A stretch of 37,699 nucleotides of DNA from positions 1-37,699 of the forward strand of contig JAJYIV010000010.1 of NCBI GenBank assembly GCA_021789915.1, given 5' to 3'. Position numbers and translations under genes: made by a program. This DNA comes from a bacterium. GTDB taxonomy: Bacteria; Patescibacteriota; Patescibacteriia; UBA9934; GWF2-40-263. The notes under the pieces are model-generated. The model had not been told where the DNA came from, did not search any database, and worked only from the letters and a program-made list of their open reading frames with translations. Position 1 is the stretch's first letter. The number at the start of each line of letters is the position of its first letter. Shown piece by piece: positions 15,094-21,848 of this stretch.

Positions 15094-16341
15094 TCATCGG
15101 ATGAACATCGCGTCGCCGAAGGAATAGAAGCGATAGCCCTGCTTGACCGCCTCCTCGTACGCGGCGAGGACGTGCTCGCGCCCCGCGAACGCCGAGACGA
15201 GCACGAGCAGCGTCGACTTCGGCAGATGGAAATTCGTGATCAGCGCGTCCACGATGCGGAAGCGGAACCCGGGCGTGATGAAGAGATTTACGTCGCCGAC
15301 AAAGCCGTCCGCGGGGAGCGGGCAACCGGCAACAACCCCTAACCCCTCCTTGGAAAGGAGGGGACGCGAATAGACGCGTCCTCCCCTTTCCAAGGGGAGG
15401 CTGCCTGCTGGCCCTTCTTCGGCAGGCGGAGGGGTTGCCGCGGCAGCGCCCTCGAGCGCGCGCACCGTCGTCGTGCCCACGGCGATCACGCGGCGGCCCT
15501 CCGCCTTGGCCTGGTTGATCCGGCGCGCCGTGTCTCCCTCGATCTCGACGTATTCCGCGTGCATCTCGTGCTCCTCGATCGTCTCCGTCTTCATCGGACG
15601 GAACGTGCCGATGCCGACGTGCAGGACGATCGTCTCGAACTGCACGCCCTTCCCTTTCAAGCGTTCGATGAGTTCCGCCGTGAAGTGGAAGCCCGCGGTC
15701 GGCGCGGCGACGGAGCCGACGCGCTCCGCGTACACCGTCTGATATCGGTCGAACGCGTCCGGCGCGGTTTTGACGTACGGCGGCACGGGAATCTCCCCAT
15801 GCGCGTTCGCGAAGGCGATCACCTCGTCCGCCGTCTGCGCGAAGGAAAGACGCACGCGCCCGTCCTTCTCCTTCGCGACGACCACGCACGACCATCCCTC
15901 AGCGAGCGCGATCACGTCGCCGACGCGCACGCGCCGGCCCGGCCGCGCGAGCGCCTCCCACGACGAGCCGGCGGCCTCCACACGCGGACGCAGCAAAAAA
16001 ATCTCCACGTCCTTGCCGCCACCAGAACTCCCCCCTGCCCCCTCTTCAAAAGAGGGGGTGACGCGCCCGCGCAGACGCGCCTTGAACACCTTGGTTTTGT
16101 TCACGACCAAGACGTCGCCGGCCTGCAGCTCGTCGGCAATCTCGAAGAAGCGCTTGTGCCGCCATGGCGCAACATTTGCCCCCCTGCCAAGGGGGGCTGC
16201 CTGCTGGCCTTCCGTTGGCAGGCGGGGGGTATGAATGCGGTCGAGCGCCATCAGCCGCGACCGGTCGCGCGGTTCCACGGAGCATTGGGCGATGCGCTCG
16301 GGCGGCAAGACATAATCGAATTGCGAGACGGGCGTGGCCAT
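15094..16341 (-). CDS. queA: S-adenosylmethionine:tRNA ribosyltransferase-isomerase with three in-frame palindromic insertions
   Basis: Makes epoxyqueuosine in the tRNA wobble base from preQ1 and SAM. Recognisable core: FDYVLPPERIAQ, DRSRLMALDR, GDVLVVNKTKVFKARL, HGEIPVPPYV, DRYQTVYAERVGSVAAPTAG, then FHF, LHVGIGTFRPM, EEHEMHAEY, RRVIAVGTTTVRALE, VDALITNFHLPKSTLLVLVS, then AFAG, and YRFYSFGDAMFI. At 415 aa it is about 60 aa longer than typical. The excess lies at residues about 36-61, 94-108 and 303-346, each encoded by a GC-rich palindromic repeat and each between conserved blocks. Start ATG 16341 gives the conserved N-terminus. The open frame implies a translated product. Confidence 0.95.
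   Translation of the reverse strand: MATPVSQFDYVLPPERIAQCSVEPRDRSRLMALDRIHTPRLPTEGQQAAPLGRGANVAPWRHKRFFEIADELQAGDVLVVNKTKVFKARLRGRVTPSFEEGAGGSSGGGKDVEIFLLRPRVEAAGSSWEALARPGRRVRVGDVIALAEGWSCVVVAKEKDGRVRLSFAQTADEVIAFANAHGEIPVPPYVKTAPDAFDRYQTVYAERVGSVAAPTAGFHFTAELIERLKGKGVQFETIVLHVGIGTFRPMKTETIEEHEMHAEYVEIEGDTARRINQAKAEGRRVIAVGTTTVRALEGAAAATPPPAEEGPAGSLPLERGGRVYSRPLLSKEGLGVVAGCPLPADGFVGDVNLFITPGFRFRIVDALITNFHLPKSTLLVLVSAFAGREHVLAAYEEAVKQGYRFYSFGDAMFIR
15334..15438. repeat. palindromic insertion element 3 in queA (about 105 bp)
   Basis: Contains hairpins CCCCTCCTT/AAGGAGGGG, GGACGCG/CGCGTCC and CCCCTT/AAGGGG, and the outer pair ACCCCT/AGGGGT. Its first about 33 bp recur almost identically at 20850-20885. 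Its second half resembles 16171-16232. It encodes PLLSKEGLGVV in the queA frame. Confidence 0.9.
16028..16063. repeat. palindromic insertion element 2 in queA
   Basis: Hairpin CCCCCTCTT/AAGAGGGGG within a GC-rich block; encodes TPSFEEGAGG in the queA frame. Confidence 0.85.
16171..16232. repeat. palindromic insertion element 1 in queA
   Basis: Hairpin CCCCCCTGCC/AAGGGGGG plus GCCTGC/GCAGGC. It shares GGCTGCCTGCTGGCC and GGCAGGCGG with 15391-15431. It encodes TPRLPTEGQQAAPLGRG. Confidence 0.85.
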
Positions 16342-18702: not shown

Positions 18703-19398
18703 ATGCAAGCCGTCATCCTCGCGGCGGGAAAAGGCACGCGTCTGGCGCCGCTCACGAACGCCGTGCCGAAGGCCCTTGTCGACCTTGGCGGCGGGCGGAC
18801 GCTGCTTGAAGCGATCCTCGAACAGCTGCCGGAAGAGGCGGACGAACTCGTATTCGTCGTCGGCCATCTCCAGGAACAGATCCGGGAACGTTTCGGCGCA
18901 TCCTGGAGCGGGCGCCCCATCCGCTACGCCGTGCAACAGCCGCTGGACGGCACGGGAACGGCGCTTCACGCCGCGCGGATGATGTTGCGCGGAACCTTCC
19001 TCGTGGTGAACGGAGACGACGTGTACGCCGCCGAGGATTTGGAGCGCTTGATTTCGCATCCGCTCGCCATCCTCGTGCAGGCGACGCGCGAGCGGCTTGC
19101 GCACACCGCACTCGTTTCCGGCGACGGGCGTTTTCTCGGCCTGGAAAGCGACCCGCCGCCGGCTCAGCCGCATGTGCGCGTGTGCGGCGCGTACGTGCTC
19201 GACGAACGGTTCTTCCGGTATCCGCTGGCGGCCATCGACGTCCGCGGTCGGCGCGAATACAGCCTGCCGCATACGCTGGTCGAACTCGCCAAGGACGCGC
19301 CCGTCGCCGCCGTGGAGGCGACGCGCTGGCTGCCGGTGGGGACGCCGGAAGAACTGGAGGCGGCGCGGCGGATGAGAAGAAAGATGGTCGATGAGTAG
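18703..19398 (+). CDS. sugar-1-phosphate nucleotidyltransferase (NTP_transferase family)
   Basis: 231 aa with the pyrophosphorylase signature at the N-terminus, MQAVILAAGKGTRLAPLTNA, then VPKALVDL (GxGxRxxPxT-x-x-x-P-K). Further motifs are VVGHLQEQIRERF, QQPLDGTGTAL (nucleobase/sugar site) and FLVVNGDDVY (metal-binding D in GDD). The C-terminal part WLPVGTPEELEAA matches single-domain GlmU-N/RfbA-like enzymes. It would make an NDP-sugar, plausibly feeding the glycan genes at 22-28 kb. Exact sugar unknown. No left-handed beta-helix domain is present. Confidence 0.9.
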   Translation: MQAVILAAGKGTRLAPLTNAVPKALVDLGGGRTLLEAILEQLPEEADELVFVVGHLQEQIRERFGASWSGRPIRYAVQQPLDGTGTALHAARMMLRGTFLVVNGDDVYAAEDLERLISHPLAILVQATRERLAHTALVSGDGRFLGLESDPPPAQPHVRVCGAYVLDERFFRYPLAAIDVRGRREYSLPHTLVELAKDAPVAAVEATRWLPVGTPEELEAARRMRRKMVDE

Positions 19399-19404
19399 GC
19401 GATT

Positions 19405-19446
19405 GGGCGCGTGCATCGTCCGGCGCGCCCCCGTTTCCTTTTTTCC
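19405..19446 (+). terminator. Rho-independent terminator after the nucleotidyltransferase
   Basis: Arms GGGCGCG (19405-19411) and CGCGCCC (19424-19430) followed by CCGTTTCCTTTTTT. It occupies most of the short gap before the RT gene, leaving no room for an upstream retron RNA. Confidence 0.75.
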
Positions 19447-19481
19447 GCCCGCATGGAAAGATGCGGCCGGGAGGAGAACCC

Positions 19482-20378
19482 ATGCGTTCCTTGTCTGATC
19501 TGCTGCGCGTGATCGGCTATGCGCCGAACGCCTTCGCCTGCGTGCTCGCCCAAACGGCGGCATGTCGGACGGTCGCCATATCCAAGCGCCGTGGCGGCGT
19601 GCGCACGCTGACGATTCCGCCGCCGCCCGTCCGCGAAGCGCAGGCGCGTTTCGCGCGCTGGTTCCTGCACTTCGCGCCCGTTCCCGTCTGCGTGCACGGC
19701 GGCGTGCGCCGGCGCAACGTGCGGACGCTCGCCGAGACGCACCGCTTCGCCGGCTCGATGGTCACGTTCGACCTGCGCGACGCCTTCACACAGGGGACGA
19801 TCCCGCGCGTGCAGGCCGTGTTCCGCCGACTTGGTTTCGATGCCGAAGCCGTCAAGGCGTTCACGCGTCTGTGCACGTTCGGCGGCTGCCTGCCGCAGGG
19901 AGCGCCCTCGTCCAACGCGCTGTGGAACCTCGTGTGCGCCGACCTGGACGCGCAGGCACTTGCCTTCGCCGCCGCGCACGGTCTCGTCTTCACGCGCTAC
20001 ACCGACGAGCTCACGTTCTCGTCGCGCGCGCCGTCCATCCCGCCGGACGTACGCGCGCATGCCGCGAGGGTCATCGCGGAAGCGGGCTTCGCGTCCAACG
20101 CGCGCAAGACGCGTTACCAGGAATCGCGCCGCGGCGCCCTGATCGTCTGCGGCGTCTCCATCCATGGCGGCCTGATCACGCTGACACGCGCCGAGCGCGA
20201 ACGCATCCGCGCCATCATCCATTTGGCCGCCACGCGGCCGGGAATCCCGCGGGCGTACGTCGAGGCGCAGGTGGGGCGCGTGCGCGGCCTGGCCCGCGAC
20301 CGGCGCGGCCGCGCGGGATTGCCGAAGCGGCTGCGCGAGCCGTACGAACGGTATCGCCGCTTGCAGACCAACGGATAA
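19482..20378 (+). CDS. retron-type reverse transcriptase with altered motifs
   Basis: 298 aa from ATG 19482, preceded by GGGAGGAG. RT palm motifs run in order: A, VTFDLRDAF (D97); B, CLPQGAPSSNALWNL (138-150); C, FTRYTDELTFSS, where Y173-T-D-E replaces the usual YADD; then RKTRYQESRRGALIVCGVSI (220s), where VCG replaces retron VTG. Region X, VHGGVRRRNVRTLAETH, parallels retron NAxxH (here LAETH). The first catalytic Asp of motif C is kept. There is no maturase, endonuclease or other domain. It is placed alone between a terminator and a structured non-coding stretch; no classical msr-msd upstream. It may be active with a divergent partner RNA, or decaying. Confidence 0.88.
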   Translation: MRSLSDLLRVIGYAPNAFACVLAQTAACRTVAISKRRGGVRTLTIPPPPVREAQARFARWFLHFAPVPVCVHGGVRRRNVRTLAETHRFAGSMVTFDLRDAFTQGTIPRVQAVFRRLGFDAEAVKAFTRLCTFGGCLPQGAPSSNALWNLVCADLDAQALAFAAAHGLVFTRYTDELTFSSRAPSIPPDVRAHAARVIAEAGFASNARKTRYQESRRGALIVCGVSIHGGLITLTRAERERIRAIIHLAATRPGIPRAYVEAQVGRVRGLARDRRGRAGLPKRLREPYERYRRLQTNG

Positions 20379-20399
20379 GCGCGTACGCTCGCTTCAGCT

Positions 20400-20668
20400 G
20401 GCCGCCCTTGTGCCATGAATAAGGGATCGGGAGGGCATCCGCCTTCCCGACGACAGGAAGTACGAGCCCGTCGGTTTTCCCTTTCGGTCGGCGGCATCCG
20501 CCGGCTCACCTCGCGCGCGTGCGCGTTCCGGCTCTCGTACCGGAAGGAGGCACCCGGCCGCTGCCCGGACGTCCGGCCCGTGTCCGCTCCTTCATCCACG
20601 CTTCCCGCGTGAATTGGAGGGCGCGGACCGGACGCCCGTTCTCGACCCCACGCGGGGTCTTTTCTTTT
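20400..20668 (+). ncRNA. candidate structured RNA downstream of the RT
   Basis: No plausible gene. A succession of perfect stems: CCCTT/AAGGG (20405/20421); CGGGAGGG/CCTTCCCG (20428/20442, one GU); CGGCGG-CAT-CCGCCG (20489-20503); TTCCGG/CCGGAA (20526/20540); GGCCG/CGGCC (20556/20574). These are followed by a compound hairpin with GTCCGC/GCGGAC (20582/20623), CTCC/GGAG and CACGC/GCGTG. It closes with a terminator (GACCCC-ACGC-GGGGTC, T-rich) at 20644-20668. Candidate template or partner RNA of the RT, but high GC alone creates stems, so confidence is limited. Confidence 0.35.
20644..20668 (+). terminator. Rho-independent terminator downstream of the RT region
   Basis: GACCCC-ACGC-GGGGTC followed by TTTTCTTTTC. 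Confidence 0.85.
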
Positions 20669-20734
20669 CTGCCGTGAGCCATTAGCCTTGAGCCACTGGG
20701 GATGGGCATTGGCGGAGCGGCACGGACAAGGCGT

Positions 20735-20938
20735 CCCCCTCCGGCCGGCTGCGCCGGCCATCTCCCCCTGCCTAGCAGGCTCTGCCGGGCCGGATGAGGG
20801 CGCGCAGGCGGGAGGGTTGTAGAAGAGACACTGGGCGCATTCCACGGCAACCACCCCTAACCCCTCCTTGGAAAGGAGGGGACGCAAAAGGACTCGCGCG
20901 GCTGGTTCCTCCCGTCCCTCAAGTCCCTCAAGTCCCTC
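20735..20938. repeat. repeat-filled gap before prmC (palindromic element copy and CCCTCAAGT array)
   Basis: 20735-20812 holds GGCCGGC/GCCGGCC-type palindromes. 20850-20886 is a near-identical copy of the queA element at 15334-15366. 20918-20938 is a 9-nt tandem array CCCTCAAGT. No gene in this stretch. Confidence 0.8.
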
Positions 20939-20939
20939 T

Positions 20940-21848
20940 GTGACTACCTACCTCGAAGCGCTCCAATGGGCCAACGAGATGCTCCGCGCCGCCAGCGGCC
21001 GCTTCGCGTCGCCCATGCTCGACGCGGAGGTCCTGCTCGCGGAGGCGACGGAGATTCCCCGCTCCAGGCTGTTCCTCCGCTTCGATGCGCCGCTGCGGCC
21101 CGACCAGATCGGGCGGTTCGAAGGATTCGTGCGCCGCCGCGCGGCCTTCGAGCCCGTCGCATACATCGTGGGCCGCAAGGAATTCGCCGGCCGTCTTTTC
21201 CGCGTGAATCCGTTCACGCTAATTCCCCGCCCCGCGACGGAGGCGCTGGCCGCCGCCGCCATCGAGCTGGCCGGCGAGGGCAGCCGGGACGCGACGATCT
21301 TCGCCGACGTCGGCACCGGTTCGGGCGCCATCGCCGTCACCCTGGCGGCCGAGACGCACCTGCCGGTCATCGCGACCGACGCGAGCCGCCCGGCGCTCGC
21401 CGTCGCGCGCCTCAATGCCGAAGCCCACGGCGTGGCCGGTCTCGTCGAAGGGCGGCACGGCCGCGGGCTGGAACCGGTGGCGCGCGTGTGCGAGGCCGTC
21501 CGCGCGTCCGGCCGCCGCCTGCCGTACGATCATCTCATCCTCTGCGCCAACCTGCCGTATCTCCCTGAAACGCGTTGGGAGGAATTGCAGGAGGACATTC
21601 GCCGGTACGAGCCGCGTTCCGCGCTTCTGTCCGGCCCCGACGGCCTGCGCGACTATTGGGAACTGTTCCGCGCGCTCAAGAGCCGACGCGCGGTTTTGCC
21701 CATGCGCGCATCCTGCATCATCGAAATAGACCCGACGCAGGCCCTGACGGCGCCGGCGCTCATCCGGCACGCCTTCCCCGCCGCATCCGTGCGCATCGCC
21801 AAGGATATGGAAGGATTCGACCGCGTGGTGATCGTCACGGGGTTGTGA
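20940..21848 (+). CDS. prmC: peptide chain release factor N5-glutamine methyltransferase (HemK/PrmC)
   Basis: SAM-dependent methylation of the GGQ glutamine of release factors. 302 aa from GTG 20940; the upstream open frame runs through repeat sequence and is rejected. N-terminal helical substrate-binding domain, then GRKEFAGRLFRVNPFTLIPR (PrmC G-x-x-x-F-x-G-x-x-F), SAM loop FADVGTGSGAIAVTLA (residues 121-136), acidic ATDAS, and the catalytic tetrapeptide as NLPY (204-207) instead of the usual NPPY. The C-terminus MEGFDRVVIV fits the family. The target prfA lies 3 kb upstream on the same strand. Confidence 0.92.
   Translation: MTTYLEALQWANEMLRAASGRFASPMLDAEVLLAEATEIPRSRLFLRFDAPLRPDQIGRFEGFVRRRAAFEPVAYIVGRKEFAGRLFRVNPFTLIPRPATEALAAAAIELAGEGSRDATIFADVGTGSGAIAVTLAAETHLPVIATDASRPALAVARLNAEAHGVAGLVEGRHGRGLEPVARVCEAVRASGRRLPYDHLILCANLPYLPETRWEELQEDIRRYEPRSALLSGPDGLRDYWELFRALKSRRAVLPMRASCIIEIDPTQALTAPALIRHAFPAASVRIAKDMEGFDRVVIVTGL

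What the first reader, a model, noticed from the sequence alone, without database searches (positions are those of the whole stretch)
19482..20378. Retron-type reverse transcriptase with altered signature motifs (YTDE, VCG, LAETH)
The protein has the RT palm motifs and the retron-specific landmarks, yet each landmark is changed: YADD to YTDE, VTG to VCG, NAxxH to LAETH. No retron RNA fits in the 83-bp upstream gap, which is mostly a terminator. There is no adjacent effector gene. It may represent a divergent RT lineage with a different partner, or a domesticated or decaying retron.
Basis: partly seen in the sequence, partly recalled or inferred. Interest (0 to 1): 0.74.

Follow-up and report, generated by a model that had tools for sequence, protein, structure and literature searches.

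The report
Retron-like reverse transcriptase with altered core
A tiny bacterium of the candidate-phyla kind carries an intact retron-like reverse transcriptase whose second catalytic aspartate is a glutamate; the same change and the same small RNA hairpin beside the gene recur in two distant relatives, so it is a maintained RNA-plus-enzyme element, not a decaying gene.

Summary
The ORF 19482-20378 is a real, intact retron-clade reverse transcriptase (RT): AlphaFold2 pLDDT 95.8, and the top PDB folds are all retron RTs. LAETH and VCG fall within normal retron variation. YTDE does not: of 182 aligned retron-like RTs, 169 have D at that site, 10 have N and 3 have E. The three E proteins (window, L290 YVDE, L292 YTDE; 34-38% identical) come from one class of small-genome, apparently Patescibacterial, bacteria. 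With motif C masked they group together with one YADD protein (SH-aLRT 92). All three are intact and solitary.

All three also carry one 21-nt hairpin, GGUCGGC-R-G-YAU-C-Y-GCCGGCU, near the RT. The pattern occurs in 6 of 380 class genomes, three of them the YxDE genomes. So decay is unlikely; a maintained RT-RNA unit with a non-standard active site fits best. Neither cDNA nor an effector is shown. YxDD, an upstream msr-msd and a linked effector were not met, so I file it as a new variant related to retrons. Side discovery: related CPR RTs head RT-[RNA units]-MoxR-VWA operons.

The parts
19482..20378 (+). Retron-clade reverse transcriptase, 298 aa; motif A D97, motif C Y173-T-D175-E176, region X L83-AETH, VCG 222-224
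   Evidence: Pfam RVT_1 38 bits; PADLOC retron RT up to 149 bits; AF2 pLDDT 95.8; top PDB folds retron Ec67/Ec86/Ec78
19470..19476 (+). Shine-Dalgarno GGAGGAG of the RT, predicted to pair with the upstream T-run (possible translational hairpin)
   Evidence: sequence; fold
20379..20665 (+). Candidate partner RNA of the RT, immediately downstream of its stop codon
   Evidence: z -4.15, -4.0 on a repeat run; first 167 nt z -5.5, the lowest value among the window's intergenic gaps; no Rfam family; contains the RT-linked hairpin
20486..20506 (+). Hairpin GGUCGGCGG-CAU-CCGCCGGCU conserved beside all three known YxDE RTs
20566..20638 (+). Long imperfect hairpin; msd-like by position only (inference)
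   Evidence: fold
20644..20669 (+). Intrinsic terminator GACCCC-ACGC-GGGGTC-TTTTCTTTTC closing the RNA

Best explanation
A solitary retron-like RT-RNA unit. The RT is transcribed with a structured 3' RNA that ends at an intrinsic terminator. The RT recognises a short msr-like hairpin in that RNA (9 bp, YAU loop) and holds it as an RNP. The active site still binds metal through D97, D175 and E176, and reverse transcribes part of the RNA into an msDNA-like product, perhaps slowly or in a regulated way. The product or RNP most likely serves phage defence or another accessory role through the RNP itself or through a partner encoded elsewhere. Shown by computation: intact retron-type RT, a YxDE lineage, RT-linked hairpin, structured RNA with terminator. 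Inferred: co-transcription, RT-RNA binding, catalysis with E, cDNA, function.
For: Intact 298-aa frame with pLDDT 95.8 and pTM 0.90. Retron RTs are the top folds: Ec67 Z 27.7, rmsd 2.9 over 295; Ec86 Z 26.0, rmsd 4.4 over 291. D97 and D175 are kept in 182/182 aligned relatives. YxDE recurs in L290 and L292 and, with motif C masked, these group with the query and one YADD protein at SH-aLRT 92. The hairpin lies within about 120 nt of the RT in all three loci. The best 21-mer shared by the three flanks has 4 mismatches in total, against 11-16 in 100 shuffles. Only 6 of 380 class genomes hold the pattern: the three YxDE genomes, all with a fully pairable form, and three others, two of which cannot pair fully (none of those three was in the RT hit list). 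There is one compensatory G-C to A-U change. Flanking genes differ between the three loci, so RT plus hairpin is the only shared unit seen.
Against: Only three members, so covariation is one pair and not above shuffle (174/500). In L292 the hairpin is upstream of the RT, in a short RNA with its own terminator-like end, so position is not fixed. In the window's predicted minimum-energy fold the lower part of the hairpin pairs elsewhere. No a1/a2 arms enclose the RNA; the best candidate is a 6-bp GAACGG/CCGTTC at p 0.55. Two other intergenic gaps of the window fold nearly as unusually (z about -4.9). Nothing here shows that E176 supports catalysis.
Confidence: 0.55

Rival explanations
1. Pseudo-polymerase: the RT is catalytically dead or crippled by D-to-E and has been kept as an RNA-binding protein, the hairpin being its binding site (for example feedback control, or a scaffold that senses phage).
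For: The changed residue is one of the three catalytic carboxylates, and YxDE is conserved in three lineages. There is no linked effector. Other CPR RTs carry YxDN at the same site, so relaxation there is recurrent.
Against: D97 and D175, LPQGAP and the K209 region are kept. A carboxylate is kept rather than lost. There is no sign of loosened constraint elsewhere in the fold.
Confidence: 0.25
2. Ordinary retron of a known type with a trivial residue change; the msr-msd has simply moved and the effector lies elsewhere.
For: Fold and profile matches are all to retron RTs, and L294, which groups with the YxDE RTs, has YADD.
Against: The three YxDE RTs hit different PADLOC retron types best (III-A, VI, XII) with no type standing out. 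No a1/a2 arms. The MoxR partner seen with related RTs in the family is absent from the genome.
Confidence: 0.12
3. Decaying or recently dead retron in one genome.
For: Altered landmarks; no effector; no close relative in the window's family carries it.
Against: Recurrence of YxDE plus the hairpin in two genomes of another family, intact frames, coding-like GC3.
Confidence: 0.04
4. The hairpin is not an RT partner but a terminus or insertion signal of a mobile element that carries the RT.
For: Single copies at different sites, once upstream and twice downstream of the RT.
Against: One copy per genome and no paired copy on the other side of the RT; target duplications were not looked for.
Confidence: 0.04

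Closest known systems
Retrons (Ec86/Eco1, Ec67/Eco2, Ec78/Eco7; retron RT families)
   Same: RT fold and length, region X H and A, thumb, intact D97/D175, adjacent structured RNA with short hairpins
   Different: YTDE instead of YxDD; RNA downstream; no enclosing a1/a2 arms found; no linked effector; best profile scores far below NCBIfam cut-offs
CPR RT-RNA-MoxR-VWA operons (L226, L227, L228, L230, L232, L287, L288, L289, L291; this work)
   Same: Same CPR-wide RT clade; structured RNA downstream of the RT in several
   Different: Those RTs mostly keep YxDD/VTG/NAxxH, have several RNA units and MoxR plus VWA genes; the window genome lacks the MoxR gene
CPR RTs with YxDN (L233, L237, L238, L240, L241, L298, L299)
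   Same: Same active-site position altered; short hairpin beside the RT
   Different: Asn instead of Glu; hairpin CUGUCAG-AANU-CUGACGG lies upstream, the canonical retron side
Defence-associated RTs that pair with an ncRNA (DRT2, DRT9)
   Same: RT plus ncRNA logic without a separate effector gene (PMC12039810, PMC12489045 abstracts)
   Different: Different RT family; Drt2 profile only 20.9 bits against a cut-off of 390; DRT2/DRT9 structures rank below retrons

Membership tests
Retron | RT of the retron clade and fold | tested here: met
   best sequence and fold matches are retron RTs
Retron | YxDD catalytic tetrad | tested here: not met
   YTDE; 3 of 182 aligned relatives have E there, all in this lineage
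Retron | Region X NAxxH and region Y VTG | tested here: inconclusive
   LAETH and VCG; 14 of 16 verified retrons keep each motif, so deviation occurs in true retrons (PMC6868368)
Retron | msr-msd RNA upstream of the RT | tested here: not met
   83-bp upstream gap not unusually structured; structured RNA is downstream
Retron | a1/a2 inverted repeats enclosing msr-msd | tested here: inconclusive
   only a 6-bp GAACGG/CCGTTC candidate, p 0.55
Retron | Branched msDNA product with 2'-5' link | not testable with these tools
   needs experiment
Retron | Linked or fused effector | tested here: not met
   neighbours are NTP transferase and prmC; no shared neighbour in the other two loci
Group II intron maturase RT | Match to group II RT/maturase model | tested here: not met
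   24.8 bits against a cut-off of 300
DRT2 | Match to the Drt2 model | tested here: not met
   20.9 bits against a cut-off of 390
Diversity-generating retroelement | TR/VR repeat pair and Avd | not tested
   not searched genome-wide; no obvious such repeat in 19300-21000; DGR RT folds score lower than retrons (Z 20.3 against 27.7)

The most novel reading that the evidence does not exclude
A distinct RT-RNA system of CPR bacteria in which the second catalytic aspartate has been replaced by glutamate and kept, with its own conserved RNA hairpin and no separate effector: a polymerase (or former polymerase) with an altered metal site acting as a two-part RNP.
Probability: 0.5. Interest if true: 0.75.

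Novelty: new variant of a known kind. Interest (0 to 1): 0.62.

Why it matters
The YxDD motif is close to universal in reverse transcriptases. A lineage that keeps YxDE, and a neighbouring CPR clade with YxDN, both with RT-linked RNA hairpins, gives natural material to ask whether the third catalytic carboxylate is essential for retron-type synthesis or only for speed and fidelity. It also shows that retron-like RNAs in small-genome CPR bacteria may lie downstream of the RT, where upstream-only searches miss them, and it led to an RT-[RNA units]-MoxR-VWA operon type that I did not find described.

Tried and rejected
Upstream gap as retron RNA: not unusually structured. Rfam match for the downstream RNA: none credible. 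The downstream RNA as orthologue of a large non-coding transcript that other family members may have between the NTP transferase and prmC: nhmmer found no similarity in the window, and the RT-linked hairpin is absent from those loci. MoxR partner elsewhere in the genome: absent at E 1e-3. Close homologues in genome contigs, viral contigs and phages: none with the single sequence (best phage matches about 32% identity); plasmid matches at most 35%. YxDE relatives in viral contigs: none. The hairpin pattern in viral contigs gave 81 stretches; no RT of this type was found on the fetched DNA. dN/dS could not be measured: no close homologue exists in the held genomes. The library holds neither Mestre et al. 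on retron types nor papers on CPR retrons found by word search, so novelty statements are limited to what was searched.

Full report
OBSERVATION. The ORF 19482-20378 (+) encodes 298 aa with a good Shine-Dalgarno. It matches Pfam RVT_1 above the curated cut-off, many PADLOC retron RT models at up to 149 bits, and NCBIfam retron models far below their cut-offs. Its GC by codon position (0.70/0.57/0.87) is that of a coding gene of this genome. There is one copy in the 1.06-Mb genome, which is 95.6% complete. AlphaFold2 with 37 homologues gives mean pLDDT 95.8 and pTM 0.90 over the whole length. The best PDB matches are retron Ec67 (Z 27.7, rmsd 2.9 over 295 residues) and Ec86 (Z 26.0, rmsd 4.4 over 291).

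WHICH LANDMARK IS REALLY ODD. On 182 aligned retron-like RTs, D97 and the first D of motif C (D175) are invariant. The site of E176 is D in 169, N in 10 and E in 3. The N of NAxxH is N in only 140 of about 181, and the T of VTG is T in 145 and C in 10. Verified retrons also deviate at the last two (PMC6868368). So LAETH and VCG are ordinary and YTDE is the real anomaly.

A LINEAGE, NOT AN ACCIDENT. The window's family (42 genomes) and order (72) hold no close homologue. A profile search of 380 genomes of the class found two more YxDE RTs: L292 (G612, YTDE) and L290 (G688, YVDE). They are 34-38% identical to the window's RT and to each other, all with intact frames. With the motif C columns blanked, query and L292 join at SH-aLRT 83, and these with L290 and a YADD protein (L294) at 92, inside a CPR-wide group of 30 rows at 86. 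These supports are moderate. A search of the family that holds G612 and G688 found no further YxDE member. The pattern, rare and scattered at different chromosomal sites, fits an accessory gene that moves between genomes (inference).

THE RNA. The 83-bp upstream gap is not unusually structured, and its T-run precedes the stem, so it is not a terminator on this strand. Downstream, 20379-20670 folds at z -4.15. In a control over the window's intergenic gaps the first 167 nt reach z -5.5, the lowest value; two other gaps reach about -4.9, so structure alone is not decisive. The stretch ends in an intrinsic terminator at 20644 and has no credible Rfam match. Comparing the three YxDE loci revealed one hairpin in each, GGUCGGC-R-G-YAU-C-Y-GCCGGCU: window 20486-20506, 108 nt after the stop; L290 9461-9481, 41 nt after the stop; L292 8311-8331, about 115 nt before the start, in a short stretch with its own promoter-like and terminator-like sequences. 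The best 21-mer shared by the three flanks has 4 mismatches in total, against 11-16 in 100 shuffles. In 380 class genomes the relaxed pattern occurs in six: the three YxDE genomes, all with a fully pairable form, and G485, G576 and G650, none of which was listed with an RT and two of which cannot pair fully. One pair changes on both sides, which with three sequences does not exceed shuffles. In the window's minimum-energy fold the lower half of the hairpin is drawn into other helices, so the full hairpin is supported by comparison, not by that fold.

MECHANISM. Best reading (0.55): the RT binds the hairpin-bearing RNA and copies part of it into DNA, as retron RTs do, with E176 replacing the usual aspartate as the third carboxylate. 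Binding, synthesis and purpose are inferred. The main rival (0.25) is an RT that no longer polymerises and acts as an RNA-binding protein. Decay (0.04) is made unlikely by recurrence of the same substitution together with the RNA.

RELATION TO KNOWN SYSTEMS. It works most like a retron or a DRT-type RT-ncRNA pair, but YxDD, upstream msr-msd and a linked effector were tested and not met, and a1/a2 arms were not found. I therefore do not file it as a retron but as a new variant related to retrons.

SIDE FINDING. RTs of the same CPR group, mostly with intact YxDD, head an operon RT-[gap of about 320 to 2300 bp without a convincing gene, strongly structured in most loci tested]-MoxR AAA ATPase-VWA protein in at least nine loci of several families. 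In the window's family a strong MoxR match occurs in the five RT-bearing genomes other than the window's and in G031, where it lies at a contig start. In several loci the gap holds two to five repeated RNA units, spaced about 160-480 bp. L232 has one unit closed by a 12-bp AAATCCAGTTTC/GAAACTGGATTT pair. The MoxR and VWA proteins match no PADLOC model. A MoxR-vWA pair is known from other conflict systems, some linked to DGRs (PMC7159879). I found no description of this RT-RNA-MoxR-VWA arrangement in the library searched.

Noticed in passing
L226, L227, L228, L230, L232, L287, L288, L289, L291 (RT to VWA); partial in L286; L296 and L297 hold MoxR-VWA at contig starts: Conserved operon RT - structured gap, often with 2-5 tandem RNA units - MoxR ATPase - VWA protein in several CPR families; MoxR co-occurs with the RT in the window's family. 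Looks like an undescribed RT-RNA system, possibly defence.
   Followed up: partly
L233, L237, L238, L240, L241, L298, L299: CPR RTs with YxDN instead of YxDD, each with an upstream hairpin of the type CUGUCAG-AANU-CUGACGG (variant in L233), the canonical retron position.
   Followed up: partly
L067, L068, L072, L074 (strong); L051, L053, L057, L063 (weaker), between the NTP transferase and prmC: 750-1100 bp interval without a plausible gene but, in most, with promoter-like and terminator-like ends and many small hairpins: a possible large non-coding RNA, no Rfam match at gathering threshold. The window's RT occupies the same interval.
   Followed up: partly
window 20845-20900 and about 15327-15378: Short palindromic repeat (CCTAACCCCTCCTTGGAAAGGAGGGG) with further copies in the genome, one lying inside the queA-like gene frame.
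   Followed up: no
L242:9180-11138: CPR RT of 652 aa with a long C-terminal extension, followed directly by two more genes; partner domains not identified.
   Followed up: no
L294 (G688): The genome with a YVDE RT also holds a second, YADD RT that groups with the YxDE lineage.
   Followed up: no
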